A stretch of DNA of 54,235 nucleotides from Pseudomonadota bacterium (GTDB lineage Bacteria; Pseudomonadota; Gammaproteobacteria; Burkholderiales; Burkholderiaceae_C): assembly GCA_021805825.1 (NCBI GenBank), contig JAJZEC010000021.1, forward strand, positions 1 to 54,235, read 5' to 3'. Positions 32,810-51,221 of this stretch are shown in pieces; the stretch's first letter is position 1; every line of letters starts with the position of its first letter. A model generated the notes under the pieces. That model had not been told where the DNA came from. It saw only the letters and a list, made by a program, of their open reading frames with translations, and did not search any database. The position numbers and the translations under genes were made by a program.

Positions 32810-33619
32810 TCAGTCGAGGTACACGGTGGGAACCTGGAACGTTGTCAGCCGGTTGGCGAACAGGAAGAAGGGGTAGTAGCGCTCCGCCAGGTAGCCGATC
32901 CAGCGATCCGTCTTCATGCGCGCGTTCGGGTCGACGACCACGAAGGGGCGTTCCGCGCGCTGGCACATCAGCGAGACGATGCGTGCATAGGAGTCGGCGT
33001 ATTCCTTGAAGATGCCAAGGGGCGTCATGCCCATCGGTCCGCAGAAGGACGCGGTGAAGGTCAGGTCGAACCAGGGCAGCAGGTGACGGTGTTCGGGAAC
33101 GACCTCGGCTACGCAGTCGATGAACAGATCCCAGGTCGATTGCAGTTGCTCCTCCAGGTACTGGTCGCGCACCGACAGCGGATGCGTCAGGGCACGCGGG
33201 ACGATCACGTCATGCACCGCCAGGATGGATTCCATCACCGCGATGTGGGCGTCGCTGCCGATGGCCTGAAGGTTTTCCGGCGTGGGCCTGGCAGGGATGA
33301 CCGGGCGCACGTCGCAGCGATCGTGCGCAAACAGCGGGTAGCGTCGGTACCCGGTTACGCCGACATAGCGTACGTCGCGCAGGTGGTGCAGGATCCAGTA
33401 CTCGGTGGCGATCGTCTGCGCGAGGTAGCCCACGCGGAAGGGGTCGACCTGCTCACCGCCGGGCAGCAGTTCGGCAATGTTGGGAGCGAACTCGCTGGTG
33501 CAGATGTAGTCCCCGCCAAGATCGAGCTGTGGCTCGTAGGCGGCACGTGCCTGCCAGGAGCTGTCGGCATGGAACGGGAAGGCCTTGTGGAAGGTGACGA
33601 AGAGCTTGAAGTTTTCCAT
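32810..33619 (-). CDS. DUF4422-type glycosyltransferase
   Basis: A 269-residue soluble protein with the DUF4422 pattern: an N-terminal LFVTFHKAFPF strand, YICTSEFAPNIAE, and the characteristic EYWILHHLRDVRYVGVTGYRRYPLF. Members occur in capsule and O-antigen clusters and are predicted glycosyltransferases. The ATG at 33619 was chosen because it places the first strand at the N-terminus. It points away from the heptose operon across a 245-bp gap in which I see no clear promoter, and it begins the sugar island next to the c-di-GMP genes. Confidence 0.75.
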   Translation of the reverse strand: MENFKLFVTFHKAFPFHADSSWQARAAYEPQLDLGGDYICTSEFAPNIAELLPGGEQVDPFRVGYLAQTIATEYWILHHLRDVRYVGVTGYRRYPLFAHDRCDVRPVIPARPTPENLQAIGSDAHIAVMESILAVHDVIVPRALTHPLSVRDQYLEEQLQSTWDLFIDCVAEVVPEHRHLLPWFDLTFTASFCGPMGMTPLGIFKEYADSYARIVSLMCQRAERPFVVVDPNARMKTDRWIGYLAERYYPFFLFANRLTTFQVPTVYLD

Positions 33620-33864
33620 GTCGGGCAAGGCCTGGAGCGGGCGGCGTGAACCGGTCTCCCTCCTGGGCTTGTCGGTATGATTGCTTCGCGGCGTGCGCCT
33701 TACCATGTACAGACACAGGCACGCAGTGTCCGGTGCGCAGGCGAGGGCCGCCCTGCTGCAGCGGATACCTTGCGGCTGCCCTGGTGTGCGCCTTGTTGGG
33801 CATGCCGGCGCTGCAGGGTTCCAGGCGCGCGGTTCGGAGGCTGTGATCGACCAGGAAATGATAG

Positions 33865-35391
33865 ATGGATGTGCTGTTGGTCAACCCCGATTCCTCCGCG
33901 CAAGCGTATCAGAGCCTGGCGGGAACCTATTCCGCCATCGAGCCCCCGACATGGGCGCTGCTGCTGGCGCAGAGCTGCCGCAGCAAGGGATTCGAAGCGG
34001 GCATCCTCGACTGTGATGCCGAGCGCCTGTCGCTGCACGATGCGGTGGCGCGCATCGAAGCCGCGCGGCCCCGCCTGCTGTTGATGGTGGTGTACGGGCA
34101 GAACCCCAATTCGGGCACGACCAGCATGATCGGTGCGCTGGCGCTGGCGCGCGCGGTGAAGGAGGCGGGGCTGGCGGCTCCGGTGGCCTTCGTCGGTTCC
34201 CATGTCAGCGCGCTGCCGCGGCAGGTGCTGGGCTACGACGCCGTGGACATCGTGCTGCTCAACGAAGGCGTATACGCGCTGCACAACCTGCTGCGCAGCG
34301 ACCTGCGGGACGATCTTGCGCGTATCCGCGGCATCGGCTACAAGGCCTCGGGGCCCGCCGGATTCGCGGTGCCGACGCTGAACCCGCCCGAGAAGGTGGT
34401 GCCGCAGGATCGCATGGACGAGGATCTGCCCGGCTACGCCTGGGATCTGCTGCCCTGCCGCGAGCGCCCGCTGGATCTCTATCGCGCCCACTTCTGGCAC
34501 GCCGGTTTCGACCACGCGCAGCGCACGCCGTTTGCCGCCATCTACACCTCGCTGGGCTGCAACTTTGCCTGCAGCTTCTGCATGATCAACATCGTCAACC
34601 GGGTCGACAACGCGGACGGGGTCAGCGCCGCCGATTCGCGCGGCATGCGCTTCTGGAGCCCGGCCTGGGTGATGCGCCAGATGCGCGCGCTGGCGGATCT
34701 GGGCGTGCGCACGCTGCGGATCTCGGACGAAATGTTCTTCCTCAACCGGAAATATTATGCGCCGATCCTTCAGGGGGTGATCGACGAGGGTTTTGATTTC
34801 AATATGTGGACCTATTCCAGGGTCGACACCGTGCGCAAGGATTCGCTGGAGCTCTTCAAGCGTGCAGGGGTCAACTGGCTGGCGCTGGGGGTCGAGGCAG
34901 GCAACCAGTTCGTGCGGCAGGAGGTGTCGAAGGGTTCGTTTCGCGAGATCAATATCCGGGACGTCTGCGCATCGATCCACGATGCTGACATCCACATCAT
35001 CTCCAATTACATATTCGGCTTCCCGGACGATGATCTGCAGACCATGCAGGAAACCCTCGACCTGGCGCTGGAGCTCAACACCGAGATGGCCAACATGTAC
35101 CCCTGCCAGGCGCTTCCCGGAAGCCCGATGTACCACACTGCCAGGCAGCAGGGATGGGCGCTGCCGGAGGATTTCGAGGGCTATGCCTTCCTGAGCTACG
35201 AAAGCCAGCCGCTGCCGACGCGGCACCTGAGTTCGGCCGAGGTTCTGCGTTTCCGGGACGAAGCCTGGCGCACCTACTTCAGCAACCCGGCCTATCTGGA
35301 TCTGGTGGAGCGACGCTTCGGACAGGATCAGCGGCGAAATGTCGAAGACATGGCGAAAATCCGGCTGAAACGCAGGCTTCTCGGGGATTGA
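33865..35391 (+). CDS. B12-binding-type radical SAM protein
   Basis: A 508-residue enzyme with an N-terminal Rossmann-like cobalamin-binding-type domain (about 1-145) and a radical SAM barrel with the 4Fe-4S cysteines Cys232, Cys236 and Cys239 (CNFACSFC). Later motifs are ISDEMFF, GVEAGN and NYIFGFPDD. The DxHxxG cobalamin signature is not evident. Relatives methylate unreactive carbons or rearrange substrates. It heads the heptose operon, 29 bp before the kinase gene, so a sugar substrate is likely; the reaction cannot be named. AGGAA lies before the ATG. Confidence 0.85.
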   Translation: MDVLLVNPDSSAQAYQSLAGTYSAIEPPTWALLLAQSCRSKGFEAGILDCDAERLSLHDAVARIEAARPRLLLMVVYGQNPNSGTTSMIGALALARAVKEAGLAAPVAFVGSHVSALPRQVLGYDAVDIVLLNEGVYALHNLLRSDLRDDLARIRGIGYKASGPAGFAVPTLNPPEKVVPQDRMDEDLPGYAWDLLPCRERPLDLYRAHFWHAGFDHAQRTPFAAIYTSLGCNFACSFCMINIVNRVDNADGVSAADSRGMRFWSPAWVMRQMRALADLGVRTLRISDEMFFLNRKYYAPILQGVIDEGFDFNMWTYSRVDTVRKDSLELFKRAGVNWLALGVEAGNQFVRQEVSKGSFREINIRDVCASIHDADIHIISNYIFGFPDDDLQTMQETLDLALELNTEMANMYPCQALPGSPMYHTARQQGWALPEDFEGYAFLSYESQPLPTRHLSSAEVLRFRDEAWRTYFSNPAYLDLVERRFGQDQRRNVEDMAKIRLKRRLLGD

Positions 35392-35420
35392 CGAACGCGG
35401 CCGAAGCACGGAACGATCGG

Positions 35421-36422
35421 ATGATTATTACAAGAACACCTTTCAGGATCTCGTTCTTCGGCGGCGGAACGGATTATCCGGCGTGGGCCAGGGAACATGG
35501 GGGCGAAGTCCTCGCGACGACCATCGACAAGTATTGCTATATTTCCTGTCGGCGCCTGCCGCCGTTTTTCGAGCACAAGCATCGCATCGTCTATTCGGTG
35601 ATCGAGAACGTGCATGCGATCGAGGAGATCCGACACCCCGCGGTGCATGCGGTGTTCGCCTTCAAGGGGGTCGAGGACGGACTCGAGGTGCACCATGACG
35701 GGGATCTGCCGGCGCGCAGCGGTCTCGGTTCCAGTTCCTCGTTCACGGTCGGCCTGCTGCATGCCCTGGAGGCGCTCGATGGTCGCATCATCAGCAAGGC
35801 GCAGCTGGCTGCCGACGCGATCCACGTCGAGCAGGATCTGATCGGCGAGACCGTGGGGTCGCAGGATCAGATCTCGGCGGCCTACGGCGGTTTCAACCGC
35901 ATCGAATTCCCGCCCGACGGCGGTTTCACGGTGGAGCCGCTGATCGTCCGCGAGGCGCGCAAGGCCGAGTTGCACGCCCACCTGATGCTGTGTTTCACGG
36001 GGCTCTCGCGCATTGCCTCCGAGGTCGCGAAGGCACAGATCAGCAACATGCCCAGGCGCGAGGCCGAATTGCACGCGATGCGCGCGATGGTCGGCGAGGC
36101 GATCGCGATCCTGCGTGACGAACGCCGCCCGATCGAGGACTTCGGGCGCCTGCTGGACGAGGGCTGGAGGCTCAAGCGCACGCTGTCGAGCGCGGTGTCG
36201 ACGCCGATGGTCGACGCGATGTACGAGGCGGCATGCGCGGCCGGCGCGCTGGGGGGCAAGCTGCTGGGCGCCGGCGGCGGAGGATTCCTGCTGCTGTTCG
36301 TGCCCCCGGCGCGCCGACATGCGGTGCAGGAAAGCCTCAAAAACGCCGTGCATGTGCCGTTCCGGTTCGAGAACGCCGGCAGCCGGGTGGTGATGTACGA
36401 ACCTACCGATTTCCATGATTGA
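35421..36422 (+). CDS. hddA: D-glycero-D-manno-heptose 7-phosphate kinase (HddA-like GHMP kinase)
   Basis: A 333-residue GHMP kinase: TRTPFRISFFGGGTDYPAW at the N-terminus, the nucleotide loop PARSGLGSSSSFTVG (97-110) and the C-terminal GGKLLGAGGGGFLLLFVP. This pattern is that of HddA, which phosphorylates C1 of heptose 7-phosphate on the way to GDP-D-glycero-D-manno-heptose. The presence of an HddC-like guanylyltransferase and a GDP-heptose dehydrogenase-like gene in the same operon supports this. It overlaps the next gene by 8 bp. GmhA and GmhB are not in the window. Confidence 0.85.
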   Translation: MIITRTPFRISFFGGGTDYPAWAREHGGEVLATTIDKYCYISCRRLPPFFEHKHRIVYSVIENVHAIEEIRHPAVHAVFAFKGVEDGLEVHHDGDLPARSGLGSSSSFTVGLLHALEALDGRIISKAQLAADAIHVEQDLIGETVGSQDQISAAYGGFNRIEFPPDGGFTVEPLIVREARKAELHAHLMLCFTGLSRIASEVAKAQISNMPRREAELHAMRAMVGEAIAILRDERRPIEDFGRLLDEGWRLKRTLSSAVSTPMVDAMYEAACAAGALGGKLLGAGGGGFLLLFVPPARRHAVQESLKNAVHVPFRFENAGSRVVMYEPTDFHD

Positions 36423-37293
36423 GGTATCCGCCCTGCAGGCCGGTGGGGAGCCGGTGCCGGGCACGACGAGGGTGGAGGCGTTGATGGATCTGCAGGAGCG
36501 CGCCCGCTGGGCCTGGCGCGAGACATTGGCCGTGCACCGCAGCGCGCCGGAGACGCGGCTCGCCTCGTCGTTGTCGGCGGTCGAGATCTTTGTCGCGTTG
36601 TACTACGGAGGCGTGCTGCGGCACGATCCGCGCGAGCCCCGGGCCGTCACCCGCGACCGCTGCATCGTGAGCAAGGGCCATGGGTCGATCTGCCTCTATC
36701 CGATCCTTGCCGACCTGGGCTATTTCGGGCGCGAGGAGCTGGCGCGCGTCGGCGTCGCCGGGGGCATTCTCGGGGGCATTCCCGACCCCGTGATTCCCGG
36801 CTACGAGACGGTCAACGGCTCGCTCGGCCACGGCCTCGGCGTGGGCAGCGGCATCGCCCTCGCGCTGCGGCGTCGCGGCGCACCGCAAAGCGTGTTCGTC
36901 GTGTGCGGCGACGGCGAGTTGCACGAAGGCGCGAACTGGGAGGCCATCATGTTCGCCGCGCAGCACGGACTGGACAACCTGCACCTGGTCGTCGACGACA
37001 ACGCGATCACCATGCTCGGGCATACCGCCGGCATCGTCAGCCACGGCGACCTCGCGGCGCGGCTGAGCGCCTTCGGCTGGCACTGCGCGCAGGTCGACGG
37101 ACACGACGTGCTGGGCGTGCGCGACGCACTGCTGGAATTGAAGGAACGCCGCGCGGGTGCGCCCAAGGCGCTGATCGCGCGCACCCTGAAGGGCCGCGGG
37201 GTTCCAGGGCTGGAGGATGCGCCGCTGTCGCACATCATGAACCCCAAACCCGAGCTGCTCGACCAGCTGCTGCGCGAGGGACGGCCGCAATGA
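36415..37293 (+). CDS. Transketolase N-terminal subunit
   Basis: A 292-residue thiamine-diphosphate-binding subunit: SKGHGSICLYPILADLGYF, GSLGHGLGVGSGIAL and the cofactor motif GDGELHEGANWEA ... VVDDN. Split transketolases consist of this and a second subunit encoded next. They move two-carbon units between sugars. In this operon it could supply sedoheptulose 7-phosphate or add a two-carbon branch to a keto sugar (inference). The gene overlaps both neighbours, so it is translationally coupled. Confidence 0.9.
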   Translation: MIEVSALQAGGEPVPGTTRVEALMDLQERARWAWRETLAVHRSAPETRLASSLSAVEIFVALYYGGVLRHDPREPRAVTRDRCIVSKGHGSICLYPILADLGYFGREELARVGVAGGILGGIPDPVIPGYETVNGSLGHGLGVGSGIALALRRRGAPQSVFVVCGDGELHEGANWEAIMFAAQHGLDNLHLVVDDNAITMLGHTAGIVSHGDLAARLSAFGWHCAQVDGHDVLGVRDALLELKERRAGAPKALIARTLKGRGVPGLEDAPLSHIMNPKPELLDQLLREGRPQ

Positions 37294-38285
37294 GCGCCAA
37301 GCCGCTGGCCATGCGCGACGCCCTGCTCGCGCGCATCCGGGACGCGATGGCCGAGGATCCCTCGATCTTCTTCGCCTGCGCCGATTTCGGTTCGCCGGTG
37401 CTCGACAGCATCCGCGCCGAACACGCCGACCGCTTTGTCAATGTCGGCATCGCCGAGCAGAACCTGATCAACATCTCGGCGGGTCTGGCCCTGGAGGGTT
37501 ACAAGGTGTTCGCCTACGCGATCGCTCCCTTCATCACCATGCGCTGCTACGAGCAGATCCGCGTCAGCCTGGCTCTGCTGTCGACGGTGCGGCCGATGAA
37601 TGTCAACCTGATCGGCGTCGGCGCGGGCTACAGCTACGTCGTTTCGGGGCCGACGCACCAGTGCTACGAGGATCTCACGCTGATGCGCGCGATGCCCAAC
37701 ATGCAGGTGCTGTCGCCGGCCGATCACGTCGCCGCGGCAGCGGTCTTCGATCGCTGCAGTACCCAGGGCGGACCGAAGTACGTGCGGCTGGATGCCCAGG
37801 TGCTTCCCGTGCTGTATGCCGAGCAGGCGCCGGACTGGAACCTCGGATTCTGCGCCCGCCGCAGCGGCGGATCGCTGTGCCTGCTGGCCACCGGCTACAT
37901 GGTGCACACGGCGGAGAAGGTGGCAGCGAAGCTGGCCGACGAAGGCCTGCAGACGGGGGTGATCGACCTGTTCGATCTCGGCGCCTTCTCCCGCGAGGGT
38001 CTGCGCGCGGAGCTTGCCGGCTATGCCGGGGTGCTGTCGCTGGAAGAGGGTTTTCGCGGCCGCGGCGGCCTGGATGCCATGCTCGGAGCCTTCCTGCGCG
38101 AACAGCTTCCCGATCTGCGCTACCTGAACCTCGGCGTCGAGGGCAGCTACCGCTTCGAGCTCGGAACGCGTGCGCAGCTGCACGAGGCGGTCGGCATCGG
38201 TGAGCAGGTGGTTCTGCAGAAGGCGCGCGCGTTCGCATCGACACTGGCGGCCGACGCAGGCGCGCAAGCATGGGGCAAGCAATGA
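37290..38285 (+). CDS. Transketolase C-terminal subunit
   Basis: A 331-residue subunit with the pyrimidine-binding domain (FVNVGIAEQNLINISAGLALEGYKVFAYAIAPF; the Glu activates thiamine diphosphate) and the C-terminal transketolase domain (RLDAQVLPVL, LATGYMVHTAEKV, LSLEEGFRGRGGLDAML). It pairs with the preceding subunit to form one active site. The start overlaps the previous stop (ATGA) and the stop overlaps the next start (ATGA). Confidence 0.92.
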   Translation: MSAKPLAMRDALLARIRDAMAEDPSIFFACADFGSPVLDSIRAEHADRFVNVGIAEQNLINISAGLALEGYKVFAYAIAPFITMRCYEQIRVSLALLSTVRPMNVNLIGVGAGYSYVVSGPTHQCYEDLTLMRAMPNMQVLSPADHVAAAAVFDRCSTQGGPKYVRLDAQVLPVLYAEQAPDWNLGFCARRSGGSLCLLATGYMVHTAEKVAAKLADEGLQTGVIDLFDLGAFSREGLRAELAGYAGVLSLEEGFRGRGGLDAMLGAFLREQLPDLRYLNLGVEGSYRFELGTRAQLHEAVGIGEQVVLQKARAFASTLAADAGAQAWGKQ

Positions 38286-39469
38286 GCATTCGATTTCCAC
38301 TGATGCGCAACAACATCCTGCGTGAGGATCTGGATGCGGTGATCGCGCACCTGCAGGGCGACGACCCGATGCTCACGCATGGAGCGCAGGTGCGCGCCTT
38401 CGAACAGGAGTGGTCGGAGTGGCTCGGCGTGCGGCACAGCGTGTTCGTCAATTCCGGCGCTTCGGCCAACCTGCTCAGCATGGCCGTGCTGCGCGCTCGT
38501 TTTCCCGAGGGTGGCGAGGTCATCGTGCCCCCGTTGACCTGGGTTTCGGATATCGCTTCGGTGCTGCAGCATGGGTTCCGGCCGGTGTTCGTCGACATCG
38601 ACCCGGCTAACCTGGCCATGGATGCGCGCCAGGTCGTGGACAAGCTCAACGAACATACGCGCGCCGTCTTCCTGACGCATGTGCAGGGCTTCGACGGGCT
38701 GACCGACGCCCTGATCGACACCCTGCGCGCGCGCGGGGTGGCGTTGATCGAGGACGTGTGCGAGTCGCATGGGGCGACGCATGGCGGGCGCAAGCTCGGA
38801 ACCTTCGGCTGGATCTCGAACTTCTCCTTCTACTACGCGCACCACATGAGCACGATCGAGGGCGGCATGGTGTGCACCGACGATCCCCAGGTGTTCCAGC
38901 AGCTGCGCATGCTGCGCTCGCACGGCATGGTGCGCGAGGCCACCGATGCCGCGCTGCGCGACGCCTACGCCCGCGACCACGCGGATCTGAACCCGGACTT
39001 CATCTTCGCCCATGCCGGCTACAACATGCGCAATACGGAGATCGGGGGCATCCTCGGGCGCAGCCAGCTCAGGCGCCTGGACGCGAACGTGCGGCGGCGC
39101 ACGCAGAACCTGCACCGCTTCCTGTCGCGCATCGACGCCAGACGCTACCGCACGGACTTCAAGCTCGAGGGCAGCAGCAACTACGCCTTCAACGTGGTTC
39201 TGCGCGAGCCCGACGATGCCTTCGCGCAGCGCCTGATGGCGCGCATGCGGGCGCACGGAATCGAATTCCGGCGCGGCAGCGCAGGCGGCGGCAACCAGCT
39301 GCGCCAGCCCTACCTGCGCGGCCTGCTGGAGGAGGGCTCCCACCTGCGCTTTCCCGAGGTCGAGCACATCCATTTCTATGGCTTCTACATCGGCAATTTC
39401 CCGGACTTGCGCGATGAGGAGATCGACCGCATCTGCGAGGTGCTGAACACCGCGGATCAGGGCGCATGA
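38282..39469 (+). CDS. ColD-type PLP-dependent sugar 3-dehydratase (DegT fold, His replaces Lys)
   Basis: A 395-residue protein with the DegT/DnrJ/EryC1 aminotransferase fold: NSGASANLLSM, VPPLTWVSD, Asp158 in IEDVCESHGA and SNFSFYYAHHMSTIEGGM. The lysine that normally binds PLP is replaced by His187 of the HH pair, as in ColD and the E1 3-dehydrases, which remove the C3 hydroxyl of 4-keto sugars. The 2Fe-2S CxCxC cluster of E1 is absent, favouring a ColD-like, ferredoxin-free mechanism. A 4-keto substrate would be provided by the SDR at the end of the operon. A plain aminotransferase is unlikely without the lysine. Confidence 0.85.
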   Translation: MSIRFPLMRNNILREDLDAVIAHLQGDDPMLTHGAQVRAFEQEWSEWLGVRHSVFVNSGASANLLSMAVLRARFPEGGEVIVPPLTWVSDIASVLQHGFRPVFVDIDPANLAMDARQVVDKLNEHTRAVFLTHVQGFDGLTDALIDTLRARGVALIEDVCESHGATHGGRKLGTFGWISNFSFYYAHHMSTIEGGMVCTDDPQVFQQLRMLRSHGMVREATDAALRDAYARDHADLNPDFIFAHAGYNMRNTEIGGILGRSQLRRLDANVRRRTQNLHRFLSRIDARRYRTDFKLEGSSNYAFNVVLREPDDAFAQRLMARMRAHGIEFRRGSAGGGNQLRQPYLRGLLEEGSHLRFPEVEHIHFYGFYIGNFPDLRDEEIDRICEVLNTADQGA

Positions 39470-40212
39470 CGACCGCGATCATCCTGGCCGGTGGCCGCGG
39501 CACGCGGCTGCGCGCAGTCGTCGCGGATCGACCGAAGCCGATGGCCCCGATCCTTGGCAGACCCTTTCTCGAACACCTGATGGACTACTGGATCGGGCAG
39601 GGCGTTGCGCGATTCGTGCTGTCGCTGGGCTACATGGCCGAGTACATAGAGGATCACTTTGGCGCCCAGTACCGCGGAGTGCCCCTGGGCTACGCCGTCG
39701 AGCCAGAACCCCTGGGAACCGGGGGCGGCCTGCTGCTTGCAATGCAGGGGCTGGACGACTGCGTGCTGGTGCTCAATGGCGACACCTTCTTCGAGGTCGA
39801 GCTTGCGGCGTTGCGCGCCTTCCATGAGCGCGCCGCGTCGCGCTGGACCTTCGCGCTGCATCGGCATGCCGATACCGATCGCTACCTGGGCATGCAGCTC
39901 GATGCCGACGGCAGGATTGTCGGTCTGCGCGCCGCTGACCAGCGGGGTGCACTGGTCAACGGCGGCGTGTACCTGCTGGCCCCGCAGGAGCTGCGCGGGC
40001 TTGGCCTGTCCTGCGGGCAACGCTGTTCGTTGGAAGATGAGTTGTTGCCGCGCTTCGTCGCCGCCGGCCATCGCGCCTGCGGCCTGGAGTGCGCCGGGCG
40101 TTTCATCGACATCGGCATCCCGCTCGATTACCAGCGCGCTGGCGGTCTGCTGGGCGGCTCGCCCGGGCCCGGCGGCGAGGGCGCCGATGCGGGCCTTGAA
40201 TCGTCAACCTGA
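39466..40212 (+). CDS. hddC: HddC-like sugar-1-phosphate guanylyltransferase
   Basis: A 248-residue nucleotidyltransferase: ILAGGRGTRLRAVVADRPKPMAP, EPEPLGTGGGLLLAM, LVLNGDTFFEVEL and FIDIGIPLDYQRA. It is typical of D-glycero-D-manno-heptose 1-phosphate guanylyltransferase in size and motif spacing. It would make GDP-heptose for the later enzymes. A mannose- or other-sugar specificity cannot be excluded by eye. It overlaps the preceding gene by 4 bp. Confidence 0.83.
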   Translation: MTTAIILAGGRGTRLRAVVADRPKPMAPILGRPFLEHLMDYWIGQGVARFVLSLGYMAEYIEDHFGAQYRGVPLGYAVEPEPLGTGGGLLLAMQGLDDCVLVLNGDTFFEVELAALRAFHERAASRWTFALHRHADTDRYLGMQLDADGRIVGLRAADQRGALVNGGVYLLAPQELRGLGLSCGQRCSLEDELLPRFVAAGHRACGLECAGRFIDIGIPLDYQRAGGLLGGSPGPGGEGADAGLESST

Positions 40213-40228
40213 TCCATCTGGAGAAGTC

Positions 40229-41167
40229 ATGTCCCACCGCATCCTGGTGACCGGCGGCGCCGGCTACCTCGGCTCCACCCTGGTGCCGGATCTGCTGGCC
40301 GAAGGGCACAAGGTGACCGTGCTCGACAATTTCATGTTCAGGCAGGCCAGCCTGAACCATTGCTGCCACCATCCGAATTTCTCGGTGGTCAAGGGCGACA
40401 TCCGCAACGAGTCGACCGTTGCGCCGCTGTTGCGCGACGCGGACGTGGTGATCCCGCTCGCCGCGCTGGTCGGAGCGCCGCTGTGCAGCCTGGATCCGGT
40501 CGGCGCGACCAGCACCAATCGTGATGCGATCAGCCTGATGATGCGCCTGCTGTCCAAGGAGCAGATCGTGCTGATGCCGACGACCAACAGCGCCTACGGC
40601 ACCGGCGACGAGAACCACCATTGCACCGAGGAGTCGCCGCTGCGGCCGATCTCGCAATACGCGATCGAGAAGGTCGCGGTCGAGAAGGAACTGATGCAGC
40701 ATCCGAACGCCATCAGCTTTCGGCTGGCCACCGTGTTCGGCATGTCGCCGCGCATGCGCATCGACCTGCTGGTCAACGACTTCAGCTACCGCGCGGTGCA
40801 TGACCGCTTCGTCGTGCTGTTCGAGAGCCACTTCAAGCGCAACTATGTGCATGTGCGCGACGTCTCACGCGCCTTCCGGCATGCGCTGCGCAACTTCGAC
40901 ACGATGAAGGCCAACATCTACAACGTCGGACTGTCGGACGCGAACGTGTCGAAGCGCGAGCTCTGCGAGCACATCCAGCGCCAGGTTCCGGATTTCGTGT
41001 TCGTTGAAGCCCCGGTCGGAAAGGATCCGGATCAGCGCAACTACATCGTTTCGAATGCCAAGATCGAGGCGACGGGCTTCAAGCCGGAGTTCGGGCTGGA
41101 TCGCGGGATCGCCGAATTGATCAAGGGATTCACGATGCTGCGCAATTCGGTGTACGGCAACGTCTGA
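40229..41167 (+). CDS. NAD-dependent SDR, GDP-heptose 4-dehydrogenase-like
   Basis: A 312-residue extended SDR: GGAGYLGS at 9-16, IPLAALVGAPLC, TTNSAYG, and the catalytic YxxxK (Tyr144, Lys148). From memory it closely resembles Campylobacter jejuni Cj1427, which oxidises C4 of GDP-D-glycero-D-manno-heptose (shared HHPNF/HHKNF, LVGAPLC, NYVHVRDV). That activity would create the 4-keto substrate for the ColD-type enzyme. TGGAGAAG precedes the ATG. A 4-epimerase role is the alternative. It is the last gene of the operon. Confidence 0.8.
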   Translation: MSHRILVTGGAGYLGSTLVPDLLAEGHKVTVLDNFMFRQASLNHCCHHPNFSVVKGDIRNESTVAPLLRDADVVIPLAALVGAPLCSLDPVGATSTNRDAISLMMRLLSKEQIVLMPTTNSAYGTGDENHHCTEESPLRPISQYAIEKVAVEKELMQHPNAISFRLATVFGMSPRMRIDLLVNDFSYRAVHDRFVVLFESHFKRNYVHVRDVSRAFRHALRNFDTMKANIYNVGLSDANVSKRELCEHIQRQVPDFVFVEAPVGKDPDQRNYIVSNAKIEATGFKPEFGLDRGIAELIKGFTMLRNSVYGNV

Positions 41168-41287: not shown

Positions 41288-44200
41288 TCAGGCCGTCCAC
41301 GCGCGCAACCAGCGGTCGAGGTGATCCTCCATGATCCATTCGGAGAGCACCTTGGCGCGCAGTGCGTCGCCCTGCGCACGCAGTGCCTGGGGCTCAGCCA
41401 CCGCGTCTCGGATCGCGCGCACCCAGTCGCGGAAGCGGTTGGCCACCCGCACCACCGGAAAGTCCCCCTGGTACGGGGTGATGTCCGAGCAGATCACCGG
41501 GTAGCCGAGGATGCCGTATTCGAGCAGCCGCAGATGGCTCTTGGACTCGTTGAAGGCATTGAACTCCAGCGGGGCGACGGCGAGATCCAGATCCAGGCTT
41601 GCGAGCTTGGGGGCATACTGATCCAGCGGCACTCCGCCGTGCAATTCCTTGACCACGCCCTTGAGCGATTCGGGGCACAGGCCGAAGAACACCCAATCGA
41701 CCTCGGCGGCGGTCTCGCGCACGACGTCGACGATGAGTTCGAGGTCGCCACTGTGCCCTACGCCGCCCGCCCAGCCCACGCGTGGGCGTTTGCGCTCGGC
41801 ACGCGCCGGTTGCAGCGCCTTCCAGCGCGCGCCTTCGAGGTAATTCGGGCACACCACCACCTCGTCGCTGAAACCCGCATAGGCCTTGGCCAGCGGCTCG
41901 GTGGCGACGACCAGGCGGTTGCACAGCCCGGCGGATTTGCGGAAGCGCTTGGCGATGTCCTTGTGGATCTGTGCCTTGTGCACGCTCTTCACCGGCAGGT
42001 TGGTGATCAGGTCGTCGATCTCGAATATCCGGAAGGCCTTGCTGTAGCGCGCATGCCGCTGCAGGGCCTCGATCTGCGGCCATTCCATCTGCCGCTGCAC
42101 GACCAGGCTGTCGGCGTCGATGCGTTCCATCTCCGCTGGATCGAACAGCCGCATGGTTTCCCAGCCCTGCGTCACCCCGGCGCGGTTGAGCGCGCGCATC
42201 GGCGCGATGATGCGGTACTCGCCGCAGCCTTCGCGGTCGGCCGGGTGCACGAGGATGCGCGGACGCGGCCGCCACTCCGGATCCCAGGCCAGGCACGGTT
42301 GGTCGTCGAGCAGAAAGTCGGTCGTGACCAGGCTCAGCTGGCGGTTGTAGGCGGGGTCGCGTGCGAGCATGGGCAGCCAGCGGTCGTACATGGCCTGCGC
42401 CCCGGGCGAACTGACAGGCGCGGGCTGCACCGGTGCCTTCTCGCCCGCGGGCTCGGCTTGGGCAGTGCCTTCGTGGAGCAGCAGCGCATAGGGCGTGAAC
42501 ACCACGCGCAGTCCGGCCCGGCGTGCGCGCAGGCAAAAGTCGACATCAGGCCAGTAGCCTTCGCCAGCGCCTTCCTCGAATCCCCCCAGCTGTTCGTGCA
42601 GCGACTTCCGCACCAACATGCAGGAGGCGCTGACTGCCGACAGTTCCTGCGTGAGTTGCGCACGCCCGAAGTAGCCACGATCCTCCGGGGGGCGCCCCAC
42701 GAAGGCGTGGCCCGCGATCCCGCGAATCCCAAGGATCAGCCCGGAATGAGCGATCGTGCCGTCGGCGTGCAGCAACTTGGCGCCGACGACGCCTACATCG
42801 GGGCGCAGGGCATGCCCCATCATTTCATCGAGCCAATCCTCGTGCAGCGCGGCCGCAGCGCCGTCGAGCATGAGCAGGTACGCGCCACGCGCCGCGCGCG
42901 CCCCGGCGTTGAGCAGAGCAGGCAGCCGGCTCGGCGCGTCCGTCTGCAGCACCCGCAGGCGCCCACCCAGCTCGGCCTCCCGCGATGCGATGGCCTGCAG
43001 GTAGCGCCGGCGATCCTCGTCGCCGCTACCGTCGTGCACGATCAGGATCTCGTAGGCGGGATAGCGGGTCTTGTCGATGATCGATTCGACGCAGCGCTGC
43101 AGCTGCGGCTGCGGCGCCAGTGCCGTGAGCACGATGCTCACCGCCGGACGATCCTCGGGCAGCGGCCAGCGCACCCGCCATGCCGGCGCGAACGGCCCCG
43201 GCTGCGCCTGGGCTGCGATCCCCAGGCGTTCGAAGTGGGCCTGCAGCGCCTGCTGCGCGGTGGCCAGCAGCGCTGGCACGTCCTTGCGCGTATGTCCCGA
43301 ACCGACCCGGCGGTGGTAGAGCACTGCGGGTACATGGCCGATCGCGGCTTCACCGGCCCCGCTGCGCTGCAGATGCTCCCATGCGCGCAACAGCAGGTCG
43401 TAGTCCTCGGCGCCTTCGCGCTCTGGATCGAAGCCGCCGATCGCCTCGAACAGATCGCGGCGCAGCAGCAGCAGGCCACCGACGTAGGGCAGGCTGCGCA
43501 GGTAGTCCAGGTTGAAGTCGGGCTTGCAATGCGGATTGAGGTGTTCTCCCTGCTCGTTCAAGGTGTCTTCGTCGGTGTACAGCAGCTGCCACTGAGGGTG
43601 CTCGCGCAGGGCCATGGTCACGCGGAACACTGCGTCGTCGGCCAGCAGGTCTCCGGCCTCGATGCAACCCACCCAGTCGGCCTGGCTGTCCAGCAGAGCC
43701 GAATTGGCCGCTGTCAGCACCCGTTCGGGATTGTCCAGGGCGGGCAGGTCGAGCCATTGCGCGTCCACCCAGGGATGTGCGACCGGCGCCGGGCCGGGCG
43801 TTGCAGGCGGCTTCGCGGGGGGCAGGCGCAGCAGCACGATGCGGGCATTCGGCGCGGCGCCCACCGCTTCGGCCTGCTGCAGCGCCTGCTCCGCCCATTG
43901 CTGCTCGCCCGGCAGCCAGCGTGCCTCGCCCAGCCAGGGTTTCAAAGGGGGCGGGCTTGCCTGCGTGGGCGCCGCGGCCGCCTGGGCGACCGGCGGGCGC
44001 AGTTGATGGATCGCGCTGGCCAGCAGTTCGACCAGATCCTGGCGGCCGACATGGGCGGCGTCGAGCAGGCGCTGCGCATACAGCGCGCGAACACGCTGTG
44101 CTGCCTGATCGGCGCTGAGCCCCGCATTGTGGGGATGCGCGGGGTCGCTCAATCCGCCATGAAGCCGGTAGTCCAGCAGGGGTTCGGGAATGTAGTGGTA

Positions 44201-44836
44201 GGCGTTGCGCAGCATGGCGCGAAAGCCGAGCACCAGATCCTCGAACACATCGGTGTAGGCGATGCCACCGAAATCGTTCCACAGCGAACGTGTCAAGGCG
44301 CAGGTGGCCCCGATATGCAAGGCCTGCGCCAGCGCCGCGGCCTCGATGCCCAAGCCCTGCTGAACCACCGGTGGCACGAACACCGGGTGCTGGGGATGGT
44401 CGATGACCCGGGCCTGCGTGTGCACCAGGAAGTCGCGCGGGCGGCCGAGGCTGAGATACAGATCGACGATGCGCTGCAGGCGATGCGGCAGGGACGAGTC
44501 GTCTCCGGCGTGGCCCAGGAAGAGTTCGTTGCGAGCCAGCCCGAACAGCATGCGATTGTGCTCGATCAGTCCCAGGTTCCGAGGGTTGCGGCGCAGGACG
44601 ATTTCGGTGCACCATTCGTCAGGAAGGGTGAATCGCTCGAAAAAGCCCAGGATGCACGCCCAGGTGGCATCCTTGGAGCAGTCATCGCTGACGATCAACT
44701 GGTCGATCGGATAGCTCTGCTTCAGCAGCGAGTCAAGAGCCTGCTCGATGGTTCGCTCCTGTTCGTAGGCAAGCAGGGCCACGGTGACGGGAACGAAATC
44801 CGGTTGCCGCGCATGGGAAACAGCAGATCGGGACAT
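41288..44836 (-). CDS. Four-module glycosyltransferase
   Basis: A protein of about 1,180 residues. Module 1 (about 15-250) is a GT2 domain (VTVALLAYEQERTIEQALDSLLKQ, VSDDCSKDAT, HAGDDSSLP). Module 2 (about 330-520) is a GT2-like segment with YTDEDTLNEQG and GGFDPEREGAEDYDLLLRAWE. Module 3 (about 555-790) is a second full GT2 domain (VSIVLTALAPQPQLQRCVESI, LMLDGAAAAL, GEGYWPDVDFCLRA). The C-terminus (about 850-1180) is GT4-like (VGWAGGVGHSGD, LRLLEYGILGYPVICSD). It probably adds several sugars to one glycan. A TTG at 44860 overlapping the upstream stop is an alternative start. Confidence 0.85.
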   Translation of the reverse strand: MSRSAVSHARQPDFVPVTVALLAYEQERTIEQALDSLLKQSYPIDQLIVSDDCSKDATWACILGFFERFTLPDEWCTEIVLRRNPRNLGLIEHNRMLFGLARNELFLGHAGDDSSLPHRLQRIVDLYLSLGRPRDFLVHTQARVIDHPQHPVFVPPVVQQGLGIEAAALAQALHIGATCALTRSLWNDFGGIAYTDVFEDLVLGFRAMLRNAYHYIPEPLLDYRLHGGLSDPAHPHNAGLSADQAAQRVRALYAQRLLDAAHVGRQDLVELLASAIHQLRPPVAQAAAAPTQASPPPLKPWLGEARWLPGEQQWAEQALQQAEAVGAAPNARIVLLRLPPAKPPATPGPAPVAHPWVDAQWLDLPALDNPERVLTAANSALLDSQADWVGCIEAGDLLADDAVFRVTMALREHPQWQLLYTDEDTLNEQGEHLNPHCKPDFNLDYLRSLPYVGGLLLLRRDLFEAIGGFDPEREGAEDYDLLLRAWEHLQRSGAGEAAIGHVPAVLYHRRVGSGHTRKDVPALLATAQQALQAHFERLGIAAQAQPGPFAPAWRVRWPLPEDRPAVSIVLTALAPQPQLQRCVESIIDKTRYPAYEILIVHDGSGDEDRRRYLQAIASREAELGGRLRVLQTDAPSRLPALLNAGARAARGAYLLMLDGAAAALHEDWLDEMMGHALRPDVGVVGAKLLHADGTIAHSGLILGIRGIAGHAFVGRPPEDRGYFGRAQLTQELSAVSASCMLVRKSLHEQLGGFEEGAGEGYWPDVDFCLRARRAGLRVVFTPYALLLHEGTAQAEPAGEKAPVQPAPVSSPGAQAMYDRWLPMLARDPAYNRQLSLVTTDFLLDDQPCLAWDPEWRPRPRILVHPADREGCGEYRIIAPMRALNRAGVTQGWETMRLFDPAEMERIDADSLVVQRQMEWPQIEALQRHARYSKAFRIFEIDDLITNLPVKSVHKAQIHKDIAKRFRKSAGLCNRLVVATEPLAKAYAGFSDEVVVCPNYLEGARWKALQPARAERKRPRVGWAGGVGHSGDLELIVDVVRETAAEVDWVFFGLCPESLKGVVKELHGGVPLDQYAPKLASLDLDLAVAPLEFNAFNESKSHLRLLEYGILGYPVICSDITPYQGDFPVVRVANRFRDWVRAIRDAVAEPQALRAQGDALRAKVLSEWIMEDHLDRWLRAWTA

Positions 44837-44856
44837 GGACAACGACTTCGTGGGTT

Positions 44857-45966
44857 TCAAGACAGGACGCGCAGCGCCTGGGTGAGGGCTTCGATGACGC
44901 GCTGCTCCTGCTCGGGACGCAGGTGCGGGCCGAAGGGCAAGCTGAGCAATTCCCCGCAGAGCCGGCGTGTCACGGGCAGCTCCTCGGCTTCGTAGGCCTC
45001 GGCGTAGGCCTGCTGCAGGTGCGGGGCGATCGGGTAATGGACGAGGGTTTCGATGCCCCGCGCGCTAAGGGCATGCCGCAGCTCTTCACGACGGGCATGG
45101 CGAATGGTGTATAGATGCCAGGCGGATTCGACATGCGGCGCAGGCTCCGGAAGCCGCAGGCCGGGCAGGCCGGCCAGCGCCTCGTTGTAGCGTCGAGCCA
45201 GCGATCGGCGGCGCAGGTTCCATGCGCGCAGGTACGGCAGCTTGGCGCGCAGCACGGCGGCCTGCATCGGATCCAGACGGCTGTTGAATCCCTGTAGTTC
45301 ATGCACGTACTTGCGTGACGATCCGTAGTTGCCGAGTTGGGCGATGCGCCGGGCGAGTTCGGGGTCGTTGGTCGTCACCGCGCCCGCATCGCCAAGCGCG
45401 CCGAGGTTCTTCCCAGGGTAGAAACTCCAGGCGGCCAGATCGCCCAGGCTGCCCACTTGGCGGTCGCGAAAGCGCGCGCCGTGGGCCTGCGCCGCGTCCT
45501 CGACGACAAGCAGATGGTGGCGGCGGGCGATCGCGACAATGGCGTCCATTTCCACCGGCCGTCCGTAGAGGTGCACGACCACGATGGCTCGGGTCTTCGG
45601 CGTGATCGCCGCCTCGATCCGTGCAGGGTCGATGTTCGCGCTGTCCGACTCCACATCGACCGGCAGGGGACGGGCACCGCAGTGGCTGACGGCCAGCCAG
45701 GTGGCGACAAAGGTGTGCCCGGGCACGATCACGTCGTCTCCAGGGCCGATGCCCAATGCGCGCAGCCCCAACGTGAGGGCATCAAGCCCGTTGCCCGTGC
45801 CCACGCAATGGCTGCAGCCGACGAATGCGGCCCACTCCTGCTCGAAGGCCTCGACCTCCGCGCCCCCGATATAGCGCCCGCTCGCAGCAACACGCCCCAA
45901 CGCGGCGTCGATGGCGTCGCGTGCTTCCTCGTAGGCGCCGCGCAGGTCGAGAAACGGGACGTTCAT
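44857..45966 (-). CDS. fdtB: dTDP-3-amino-3,6-dideoxyhexose transaminase, FdtB-like
   Basis: A 369-residue DegT-family aminotransferase with an intact PLP lysine (Lys186 in [15 protein letters not shown]) and Asp157 in [11 protein letters not shown]. Together with the adjacent FdtA-like isomerase it should make dTDP-3-amino-3,6-dideoxy-D-galactose (Fuc3N) or the gluco isomer (Qui3N). The starting dTDP-4-keto-6-deoxyglucose would come from RmlA/RmlB encoded elsewhere. It overlaps fdtA by 4 bp. No N-acetyltransferase (FdtC) is present. Confidence 0.85.
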
Positions 45967-46373
45967 CCGGCCAGCGCCTGCTTGATGAATTGGGCGTGGT
46001 CGCGGATGTAGTCCGCCTCGTCGTAGTGCGCGGACGCAAGCACCATGCAGACTGCTCCGGACGAGAAGTTGTCCAGGGAGCGCCAGTTCATCGAACTGAC
46101 GTACAGGCCGAAGTAGGAGCGATTGAGGTGGAATCGGCGGGTTGCGATGCCGTCGTCAAGAACGACGTCGAAACTTCCCGACATCGCGACGATGAATTGC
46201 TGCAGCGTACGGTGCGCGTGCCCGCCCCGCTCGGCTCCTCCAGGGACGTCGTACAGGTAGTACACCCTGCGAATATCGAAGGGCACATGCCGATCCGCCT
46301 CGACGAAGGTGAGGTTCCCGCGACGATCCTGGATCTTGGGAAGGGTGATGATGCGGCAGTCTTGGAGAGCCAT
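45963..46373 (-). CDS. fdtA: dTDP-4-keto-6-deoxyglucose 3,4-ketoisomerase, FdtA-like
   Basis: A 136-residue cupin of the WxcM/FdtA/QdtA family: [27 protein letters not shown], then [26 protein letters not shown] with the catalytic His52 and His54, and the C-terminal [15 protein letters not shown]. It moves the keto group from C4 to C3 so that FdtB can transaminate it. The stereochemistry at C4 (FdtA or QdtA) cannot be decided here. It is coupled to fdtB by an ATGA overlap. Confidence 0.88.
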
Positions 46374-46424
46374 GGCGAGGGCTTTTGACGATACAGGATG
46401 CGGTGTGGAGTAGCAACTGCCTGC

Positions 46425-48733: not shown

Positions 48734-48737
48734 GTCT

Positions 48738-49901: not shown

Positions 49902-49955
49902 CTCGGATGCGGAGGATCGTGCTGCATCGGGTCGCGGCAGCGCAACGTCCATGCG

Positions 49956-51221
49956 CTAAATGTACTTGAACAGACTCAGCCCCTGCACCTGCGCGAAGGC
50001 GCTCTCCGCCGCCTGCAGCGCCGTCAGGCTCTGCTGGTACTGGGTGATCACCTGCGGATAGTTGATGTTGGAAATGCTGGCCTGTTGCGTCTGGAACTGC
50101 AGCGTGAGGCTGGCGTTCTGCGTCTGCACCGCCTGCACCTGCTGCAAGCGGCTGCCGATCGCAGACTGCGTGCCGAGCAGGGTGGTCTGCGCCTGCCCGA
50201 GGCTGGCCAGGGCATTGGAAATGGCCTGCGCGCGCTGCGCGGCTGCGCCGCTGGTCTGTGCCGTGGCGGAGAAGGCCTGCTGCAGCGACTGGAAGGTGGC
50301 GAACAGGCTCTGCGAAGGTGAGGCGGCGATCGTGAAGCTGTCGCCAGCGGCCGGCGTGCCATTCACCGGAACCTCCACGGCAGGGCTGCTGCCCGGGGGA
50401 AGGCCGATGCTCATGCCGGCGGTGAAGGCGCCGCTGGCCACCACGCCGGAGGCTGCGAAGCCGGCGCCGCTGCCGCTGCTGACGCTGTAGTCCAGGCCGC
50501 CGCCTGATGCCGCGGTGCTGAAGCTGATGTGGTACCGGGTTCCCGCGACCAGCAGCACCTGCTGTGCCAGCGAAGGGTTGGACACCGTGCCCGGGCCGAG
50601 GGCCGCGCCGCCGGTGTTGCCCGAGGCGGCCGACACGCTGAAGCTGCCGTTGCCGCCGGCTATGTTCATGAACACCGCGCTGCCGGCGTCGCCGATCGCG
50701 GTGCTCAGGCTCGGCCCCAGCGCGAGCTGGTTCTGCCCGCCGTCGCCCTGGTAGCTGACCTGGCCGTTTGCCTGCAGCGCGAAGGGCTGCGTCTGGTTGC
50801 GGCTGCCGGCGAAGACATAGTTGCCCTGGCCGTCCTGGGTGTTGGCGTATTGCACCAGCTGCTGCAGGTAACCCTGCATGGTGCTGCTGGCGTTCTGCAG
50901 ATCCTGGGCATTGGCCGTGGCGTTGTTCATCTGCAACGCCAGCTGGCGGACCTGGTCGAGCAGGGTTCCGACGCTTTGCAGGGTGGAGCTTTCCAGCTGC
51001 AGCGACTGCTGGGCGTTGCTGCCGTTCTGCGTGTAGCCTGCAAGCTGCCCGATCTGCGCAGTGAGCTGCGCGTTCTGCGCCGCCGCCACCGGCTGCGCGG
51101 ACGGGTTGACCAGGCTGCTGCCGGTCGACAGCTGCTGGCTGAGATTGCCGAGCAGGGTCTGCTGCTGCAGCATGCCGCTGAGCCCGGCGCCGTAAAACTG
51201 ACTGCTGCTGATGATCTGCAT
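49956..51221 (-). CDS. flgL: Hook-filament junction protein FlgL
   Basis: A 421-residue flagellin-family protein with conserved N-terminal (MQIISSSQFYGAGLSGMLQQQ, LSQQLSTGSSLVNPS) and C-terminal (AQTTLLGTQSAIGSRLQQVQ, YQQSLTALQAAESAFAQVQGLSLF) coiled coils and a Gly/Ser-rich middle. FlgL links FlgK to the filament. It ends immediately before the ATP-grasp gene on the same strand. Confidence 0.93.
   Translation of the reverse strand: MQIISSSQFYGAGLSGMLQQQTLLGNLSQQLSTGSSLVNPSAQPVAAAQNAQLTAQIGQLAGYTQNGSNAQQSLQLESSTLQSVGTLLDQVRQLALQMNNATANAQDLQNASSTMQGYLQQLVQYANTQDGQGNYVFAGSRNQTQPFALQANGQVSYQGDGGQNQLALGPSLSTAIGDAGSAVFMNIAGGNGSFSVSAASGNTGGAALGPGTVSNPSLAQQVLLVAGTRYHISFSTAASGGGLDYSVSSGSGAGFAASGVVASGAFTAGMSIGLPPGSSPAVEVPVNGTPAAGDSFTIAASPSQSLFATFQSLQQAFSATAQTSGAAAQRAQAISNALASLGQAQTTLLGTQSAIGSRLQQVQAVQTQNASLTLQFQTQQASISNINYPQVITQYQQSLTALQAAESAFAQVQGLSLFKYI

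What the first reader, a model, noticed from the sequence alone, without database searches (positions are those of the whole stretch)
33865..41167. Seven-gene operon predicting an unusual GDP-linked deoxy, possibly branched, heptose
Seen: radical SAM, HddA-like kinase, split transketolase, a DegT-fold enzyme with His in place of the PLP lysine, an HddC-like guanylyltransferase and a Cj1427-like SDR; apart from the 29-bp and 16-bp gaps after the first and before the last gene, adjacent genes overlap. Known: HddA and HddC make GDP-heptose, Cj1427 makes its 4-keto form, ColD-type enzymes remove O3 of 4-keto sugars, transketolases add two-carbon units to carbonyls. Inference: the pathway gives a GDP-3-deoxy-4-keto-heptose that the transketolase could extend at C4 to a nine-carbon branched sugar, with the radical SAM protein modifying it further. 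I know of no described pathway with this set. Alternative: the transketolase only supplies sedoheptulose 7-phosphate.
Basis: partly seen in the sequence, partly recalled or inferred. Interest (0 to 1): 0.85.

Follow-up and report, generated by a model that had tools for sequence, protein, structure and literature searches.

The report
Widespread branched GDP-heptose biosynthesis cassette
Seven adjacent genes beside the flagellar genes of this bacterium look like a pathway that turns a seven-carbon sugar into a rare branched sugar, and the same gene set, with interchangeable carbon-carbon-bond-forming enzymes, occurs in several bacterial phyla.

Summary
The seven genes are real and exactly placed. 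The set is not a local oddity. A scan with the radical SAM protein returned 80 loci (the cap) from several phyla. In all 54 with at least 7.5 kb on both sides, one ThDP enzyme sits near the HddA-like kinase (53), ColD-like dehydratase (53), Cj1427-like dehydrogenase (50) and HddC (49). It is a split transketolase in 28 and an E1-type pair in 26, never both, with at least 7 changes on the radical SAM tree. Many cassettes also carry GmhA. It argues against sedoheptulose-phosphate supply. One point changes: cassette transketolases have lost the donor histidine (Ile in 35 of 37) and two residues recalled as phosphate-binding, so I infer a pyruvate-derived acetyl branch rather than hydroxyacetyl. 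The radical SAM protein folds like AprD4 and cobalamin-dependent enzymes; its reaction is open. A link to bradyrhizose was tested and failed. No enzyme or product was assayed. Verdict: an undescribed (within my searches), widespread variant of branched nucleotide-sugar biosynthesis.

The parts
33865..35391 (+). B12-binding-domain radical SAM protein (508 aa), CX3CX2C; reaction unknown, sugar-acting inferred
35421..36422 (+). HddA-like GHMP kinase (333 aa): heptose 7-phosphate 1-kinase (inferred)
   Evidence: NF049969 HddA 142 bits, below 600 cut-off; PDB 4usm/4usk, 3k85, 4n3o best hits
36415..37293 (+). split transketolase N subunit (292 aa); Ile at the donor-specificity His100 site (E. coli TK numbering)
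   Evidence: PF00456; 6yak best PDB hit; Ile in 35 of 37 cassette TKs
37290..38285 (+). split transketolase C subunit (331 aa); catalytic Glu kept, two recalled phosphate-binding positions lost (Gly, Ala)
   Evidence: PF02779 + PF02780; 6yaj best PDB hit; Gly 36 of 36, Ala 35 of 36
38270..39469 (+). ColD-like PLP/PMP-dependent sugar 3-dehydratase (399 aa), His for Lys (inferred function)
   Evidence: ColD 2gms E 8.7e-52; His in all 73 cassette orthologues found among the 80 loci
39466..40212 (+). HddC-like heptose-1-phosphate guanylyltransferase (248 aa, inferred)
   Evidence: NF049965 160.7 bits, below 300 cut-off; 6jq8/5xhw
40229..41167 (+). Cj1427-like SDR (312 aa): GDP-heptose C4-dehydrogenase (inferred)
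   Evidence: 6vo6 E 1.1e-111, 53% identity over 306 compared residues
41291..44860 (-). 1190-aa family-2 glycosyltransferase, convergent neighbour; possible user of the sugar
   Evidence: PF00535, two stretches; position only
49959..51221 (-). flagellin, a possible acceptor of the sugar
   Evidence: PF00669; position only

Best explanation
The operon makes a GDP-activated, 3-deoxy, 4-C-branched heptose-derived sugar (nine carbons before any radical SAM step). Steps: sedoheptulose 7-phosphate is isomerised by GmhA, phosphorylated at C1 by the HddA-like kinase, dephosphorylated at C7 by a GmhB-type phosphatase and coupled to GMP by the HddC-like enzyme (GmhA and GmhB are not in this operon; they lie in or near it in part of the relatives). 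The Cj1427-like SDR oxidises C4; the ColD-like enzyme removes O3, giving GDP-3-deoxy-4-keto-heptose. The split ThDP enzyme then adds a two-carbon unit to the C4 ketone, most likely an acetyl carbanion from pyruvate, as in yersiniose-type pathways. In relatives a GDP-fucose-synthase-like SDR (absent from this operon) could reduce or epimerise; the radical SAM/B12 protein modifies the sugar further. The sugar is probably used for a surface glycan, here perhaps on flagellin. Nothing is shown biochemically for these proteins; gene set, conservation, exchange and residue losses are shown; the reactions are inferred from homologues.
For: Gene set and families. Conservation in 80 loci; of 54 with full flanks: kinase 53, ColD 53, SDR 50, HddC 49, ThDP genes 54 (28 split TK, 26 E1-type, 0 both), GmhA 22, GFS-like 33. 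In a search by SDR instead of rSAM (12 of 369 genomes), 9 carry ColD-type and ThDP genes, among them G348 without rSAM; 2 (G114, G079) carry neither in the stretches read. At least 7 TK/E1 changes on the rSAM tree. Donor site: His100 is Ile in 35 of 37, phosphate-site positions lost; H100F and H100L in another TK raise pyruvate activity (PMC7661550, passages). Cj1427 + HS:5 C3-dehydratase yield GDP-3-deoxy-4-keto-heptose in vitro (PMC10680097, passages). Named example of the distant version: Solidesulfovibrio magneticus pDMC1.
Against: No enzyme or glycan data. HddA, HddC, RfbH and GmhA hits lie below NCBIfam's equivalog cut-offs. Split TKs acting on keto sugars have only been proposed (PMC12247030 section 2.3). 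Ile at His100 suggests but does not prove pyruvate. The ColD-ThDP link is not absolute: L042 (G291), L043 (G232), L095, L106 and L116 have ThDP-like genes without ColD above threshold in the stretch held, and an Azospirillum plasmid has a split TK with no ColD annotated nearby. Loci were selected by rSAM and many are near relatives (e.g. Nitrospira).
Confidence: 0.55

Rival explanations
1. One reading: the split transketolase moves a hydroxyacetyl (glycolaldehyde) unit from a ketose phosphate or hydroxypyruvate to C4 of GDP-3-deoxy-4-keto-heptose.
For: Overall TK family membership; ThDP motif, catalytic Glu and the other donor residues kept; hydroxyacetyl transfer by split TKs proposed for miharamycin and amipurimycin.
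Against: His100 is Ile in 35 of 37 and the H416/R474-equivalent positions are Gly/Ala in 36 of 36 and 35 of 36; E1-type enzymes, whose best family models are pyruvate dehydrogenase E1, take its place in 26 of 54 loci.
Confidence: 0.2
2. The transketolase only supplies sedoheptulose 7-phosphate for the heptose pathway.
For: GmhA, which consumes sedoheptulose 7-phosphate, is in 22 of 54 full-flank loci.
Against: E1-type enzymes, not expected to do this, occupy the same slot in 26 of 54; the genome has a full-length transketolase on another contig, E 1.9e-158; recalled phosphate-binding positions lost.
Confidence: 0.04
3. The ThDP enzyme acts on another carbon or another acceptor (for example it builds a side chain), and the 4-keto-3-deoxy sugar is finished by reduction or by the radical SAM protein.
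For: No direct evidence on the acceptor; position of attack is by analogy only. ThDP-like genes occur without ColD above threshold in L042, L043, L095, L106 and L116. GFS-like reductase candidates occur in 33 of 54.
Against: A 3-deoxy-4-keto sugar is the acceptor of the ThDP branching enzyme YerE (PMC12247030 passages); ColD and ThDP genes occur together in 53 of 54 full-flank loci and are both absent beside two SDR carriers (G114, G079).
Confidence: 0.15
4. The cassette makes bradyrhizose, the ten-carbon bicyclic sugar of photosynthetic Bradyrhizobium.
For: Cassette found in three Bradyrhizobium records (L058, L064, L074), and one of these genomes (G427) has a photosynthetic reaction centre. 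The 2016 paper calls the bradyrhizose genes unknown and proposes an 11-gene cluster that is not listed in the text held (PMC4743980, passages and section 15).
Against: Of 242 Bradyrhizobium genomes 24 have the reaction centre and 4 have the radical SAM gene; only 1 has both. Of 21 of those 24 searched, only that one has a close SDR (74%; the others 36% or less, or no match at E 1e-30).
Confidence: 0.02

Closest known systems
Campylobacter jejuni capsular GDP-heptose modification (GmhA/HddA/GmhB/HddC, Cj1427, HS:5 C3-dehydratase, C4-reductases; PMC10680097, PMC10440746)
   Same: Nucleotide, sugar, C4-oxidation and C3-deoxygenation enzymes
   Different: C. jejuni then epimerises and reduces C4; in PMC10440746 the terms 'thiamin' and 'radical SAM' do not occur, and in PMC10680097 'branched' does not occur. 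There the 3-deoxy-4-keto-D-glycero-heptose was made by mixing enzymes of two serotypes
Yersiniose A pathway (3-dehydratase, YerE, reductase)
   Same: 3-deoxygenation of a 4-keto sugar followed by ThDP-dependent addition at C4 (YerE: PMC12247030 passages)
   Different: CDP-hexose, not GDP-heptose; YerE is of the decarboxylase class, here TK or E1 types; no radical SAM protein (recalled)
Split-gene transketolases of miharamycin/amipurimycin clusters (PMC12247030 section 2.3)
   Same: Split TK proposed to attack a keto sugar
   Different: Secondary metabolism; the 13 listed all from Streptomycetes. A Streptomyces plasmid split TK (not shown to be one of the 13) keeps His where cassette TKs have Ile and Gly
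AprD4 / HpnJ-type radical SAM proteins
   Different: 18-19% identity to AprD4; HpnJ cut-off 577.6 not met; substrate and reaction unknown

Membership tests
GDP-heptose biosynthesis (HddA/HddC) | HddA and HddC models matched above curated cut-offs | tested here: not met
   Best matches in the library, 142 and 160.7 bits, but below cut-offs 600 and 300
GDP-heptose biosynthesis (HddA/HddC) | sedoheptulose-7-phosphate isomerase GmhA available | tested here: inconclusive
   GmhA-like in 22 of 54 loci; the one from L058 scores 172.7 bits, below 209.45; one GmhA-family gene elsewhere in G000, 204.9 bits, also just below
GDP-heptose biosynthesis (HddA/HddC) | GmhB phosphatase available | tested here: inconclusive
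   GmhB-like hit in 17 of 80 loci, some far from the cassette; the L061 protein is above the NCBIfam cut-offs NF006506 and TIGR00213. Not searched in G000
Cj1427-type C4-dehydrogenase | full-length close homology to Cj1427 | tested here: met
   6vo6, residues 1-311, E 1.1e-111, 53% identity; that 6vo6 is Cj1427 is recalled
Cj1427-type C4-dehydrogenase | ping-pong oxidation of GDP-heptose with alpha-ketoglutarate | not testable with these tools
   needs enzyme
ColD/RfbH-type 3-dehydratase | DegT fold with His in place of PLP-binding Lys, ColD nearest | tested here: met
   AHHMSTIEGG; ColD best PDB hit; His in all 73 orthologues found (72 by pattern, L097 by eye)
ColD/RfbH-type 3-dehydratase | NCBIfam RfbH cut-off | tested here: not met
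   187.1 against 423 bits
Transketolase | ThDP motif, catalytic Glu, H66/G114/H473-type residues | tested here: met
   Window has all; in the family Glu 36 of 36, H473-type 36 of 36, H66-type 36 of 37, G114-type 37 of 37
Transketolase | donor His100 and phosphate-binding His/Arg (positions recalled: human H416, R474) | tested here: not met
   Ile 35 of 37; Gly 36 of 36; Ala 35 of 36. The other two recalled phosphate-site positions (R318, S345) are kept in 35 of 36 each
YerE-type branching enzyme | decarboxylase-class ThDP architecture | tested here: not met
   Best Pfam families are Transketolase_N and Transket_pyr/Transketolase_C; only a weaker TPP_enzyme_C hit, 28.4 bits, on the N subunit
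B12-dependent radical SAM methyltransferase | B12-binding domain and CX3CX2C radical SAM motif | tested here: met
B12-dependent radical SAM methyltransferase | methyl transfer to substrate | not testable with these tools
   AprD4, a sugar diol dehydratase, is the nearest fold

The most novel reading that the evidence does not exclude
A cross-phylum, horizontally spread pathway makes a family of GDP-linked C4-branched 3-deoxy heptoses (nine carbons, ten or more if the radical SAM protein methylates or otherwise extends them). The branching enzyme has been replaced repeatedly by different ThDP classes that converge on pyruvate, including transketolases re-tooled from ketose phosphates to pyruvate.
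Probability: 0.4. Interest if true: 0.85.

Novelty: new variant of a known kind. Interest (0 to 1): 0.7.

Why it matters
If right, it adds a class of surface sugar present in many environmental bacteria, joins heptose and branched-sugar biosynthesis, gives a genomic set of split transketolases outside Streptomycetes with a plausible ketone acceptor, and points to a sugar-modifying B12 radical SAM family. It also explains two interchangeable ThDP enzymes in one slot and gives exact masses to look for.

Tried and rejected
Bradyrhizose origin: rejected on distribution. Sedoheptulose-phosphate supply: disfavoured. Aminotransferase function of the DegT protein: disfavoured by His for Lys. Flagellar context as a general rule: tblastn of window flagellin and FlgK hit only L037 of the 89 other sequences searched; recurrent neighbours elsewhere include KpsM-like exporter genes and glycosyltransferases. 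Literature: ten searches, of which 17, 43, 78, 84, 96 and 97 asked for this enzyme set or this kind of sugar; no description of the pathway was seen in their listings. Only an open-licence library was searched and listings were not read through, so this is weak evidence of absence. PMC3905653 was opened for donor residues and held none of the terms.

My ORF-picking script missed genes (counts); I recounted by tblastn with thresholds I set, so counts depend on those thresholds; in particular NTP, GFS and E1 hits of 60 bits or more were accepted, and two of the 33 GFS hits (L075, L094) are on the opposite strand. Five of 80 loci without a ThDP gene (L079, L082, L085, L091, L103) are short on one or both sides of rSAM and are not among the 54. 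L046 and L021 appear to be the same contig (same length, three proteins 100% identical). The tree is a quick one with SH-aLRT support only. ORFs first called around the G000 GmhA (92 protein 3, 102) were on the wrong strand or frame; the gene was then read by eye on the minus strand.
Full report
What is there. Families are as stated: B12-binding radical SAM protein, HddA-like kinase, the two halves of a transketolase, a ColD-like DegT enzyme with His for the PLP lysine, an HddC-like nucleotidyltransferase and an SDR that matches 6vo6 (recalled as Cj1427) over its whole length with 53% identity. The HddA, HddC and RfbH hits are best in their library but below the curated cut-offs.

Where it is. 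Upstream are motA, motB and fliW and a gene that reads as csrA (by eye). A DUF4422 gene is divergent. On the other strand, downstream, lie a 1190-aa glycosyltransferase, a DegT aminotransferase, an FdtA-like protein, a Gfo/Idh oxidoreductase, an ATP-grasp protein, flagellin and FlgK. Flagellin as the target is inferred from position only. Among 60 genomes searched (own included), none of the 27 others of the genus has a close ColD orthologue (best E 2.4e-38), and one genome of another family in the order has one at 74%, so the set is accessory.

Conservation. The nearest relative found there, G037, has rSAM 78%, kinase 69%, ColD 74%, HddC 59%, SDR 76%, but in place of the transketolase it has a GDP-fucose-synthase-like SDR and a small E1alpha/E1beta pair of 208 and 178 aa. 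In 369 genomes of the class 9 besides the window's own have an rSAM relative at E 1e-60 or better. By record titles they come from Pseudomonadota, Nitrospira, Chlorobiaceae, Verrucomicrobia, Planctomycetes, Flammeovirgaceae, Acidobacteriota and a cyanobacterium, many of them MAGs.

Counts (tblastn, my thresholds). Of 80 loci, 54 have at least 7.5 kb on each side of rSAM. Of these 54: kinase 53, ColD 53, SDR 50, HddC 49, GFS-like 33, GmhA 22; split TK 28 (27 with both subunits over threshold), E1-type 26, both 0, neither 0. Of all 80: 34, 41, 0 and 5. Full-flank loci lacking one or more of kinase, ColD, HddC and SDR: L064, L106, L107, L119, L121, L122. A GmhB-like hit occurs in 17 of 80 loci, in several of them (the Nitrospira ones) many kilobases from the cassette; the L061 protein is above NCBIfam's GmhB cut-offs. 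On an rSAM tree of 85 rows the TK/E1 label changes at least 7 times, 5 of them forced by well-supported branches; the label is still strongly clustered (0 of 500 shuffles as low). So the slot has been refilled several times.

Control without rSAM selection. Searching the same 369 genomes with the SDR gave 12 with E 1e-60 or better, the window's own included. Nine have ColD-type and ThDP genes: G000, G200, G348, G092, G136, G263, G366, G075 and, on two contigs, G091. Of these G348 has kinase, tktN, tktC, ColD, HddC, GmhA and SDR in a row, 48-77% identical, with no rSAM in the stretch read or at E 1e-60. G114 and G079 have SDR, kinase and HddC-like genes but neither ColD nor ThDP genes in the stretches read. 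G232 has an E1-like hit but no ColD above threshold. Against a strict ColD-ThDP link stand also L042 (G291: rSAM, kinase and a split TK at 40-41%, no ColD or SDR hit in 14.7 kb), L095, L106 and L116 (E1-type, no ColD above threshold).

Chemistry. [quoted passage not shown] a PLP C3-dehydratase acting on a 6-deoxy-4-keto GDP-heptose is also described (PMC10440746, abstract and passages). The ThDP enzyme YerE attacks such a ketone in yersiniose synthesis, and split TKs have been proposed, without in vitro proof, to do so in two Streptomycete pathways (PMC12247030, passages and section 2.3).

Donor. A paper on a split TK gives H66, H100, G114 and H473 as donor residues and reports that H100F or H100L in another TK raises activity with pyruvate, DXPS having Phe there (PMC7661550, passages). 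In the cassette N subunits H100 is Ile in 35 of 37 and His in 2 (the distant L042 and L107, by the printed rows); H66 is kept in 36 of 37 and G114 in 37. In the C subunits catalytic Glu is kept in 36 of 36, but two positions that I recall as phosphate-binding (human H416, R474) are Gly in 36 of 36 and Ala in 35 of 36; the other two (R318, S345) are kept in 35 of 36 each. A split TK on a Streptomyces plasmid keeps His at the H100 and H416 sites; one on an Azospirillum plasmid has Gly at the H416 site but an Arg near the R474 site. I infer a non-phosphorylated donor, most likely pyruvate, which would also explain the exchange with E1-type enzymes.

Named examples. Solidesulfovibrio magneticus RS-1 plasmid pDMC1 carries rSAM, NUDIX, kinase (56%), E1alpha, transketolase-C-domain protein (E1beta type), GDP-L-fucose synthase, DegT (AHIISTIEGG, His kept), SDR (58%) and nucleotidyltransferase (37%) in one run. 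Carriers of the close version among isolates include Methylobacter tundripaludum and Methylomonas sp. LW13.

Own genome. A full-length transketolase is on another contig, and one GmhA-family gene, just under the cut-off, on a third. GmhB was not searched in the genome.

Bradyrhizose. Considered because Bradyrhizobium records carry the cassette; rejected because only 1 of 24 photosynthetic genomes among 242 has the rSAM gene.

Judgement. GDP-3-deoxy-4-keto-heptose as intermediate: about 0.82. C2 branching at C4 by the ThDP pair: about 0.75. Pyruvate as donor given branching: about 0.73. Role of rSAM: unknown.

Noticed in passing
window 41291-49952, minus strand: A second sugar cluster: large glycosyltransferase, DegT aminotransferase, FdtA-like protein, Gfo/Idh oxidoreductase and ATP-grasp protein next to flagellin; looks like a dTDP-amino-deoxy-sugar flagellin glycosylation set (function inferred).
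   Followed up: partly
window 32810-33706, minus strand: DUF4422 protein divergent from the operon. No homologue found at E 1e-6 in the 89 other sequences searched.
   Followed up: partly
L021 2726-3898: Very small E1alpha (208 aa) and E1beta (178 aa, no Transketolase_C domain by Pfam), with GEM where the usual ThDP motif has GDG: a minimal ThDP enzyme worth its own study.
   Followed up: partly
L154 (G114): Cj1427-like SDR, GmhA, HddC and HddA-like kinase with a protein 42% like one in L035 that I take by eye for a sugar C-methyltransferase, and no ColD or ThDP genes on the contig: possibly a different branched GDP-heptose.
   Followed up: no
L160 6995-16370 (Azospirillum sp. B510 plasmid pAB510f): NUDIX, kinase, split transketolase, SDR, aldo/keto reductase, methyltransferase and glycosyltransferase together, no ColD annotated: a distant variant.
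   Followed up: partly
L063 17892-18485, L159 11734-12357, L162 10494-10973: NUDIX hydrolases recur beside the cassette; role unknown.
   Followed up: partly
L037: Distant cassette (full-length E1 type) on a contig with flagellin- and FlgK-like hits, the only other sequence of the set with them.
   Followed up: no
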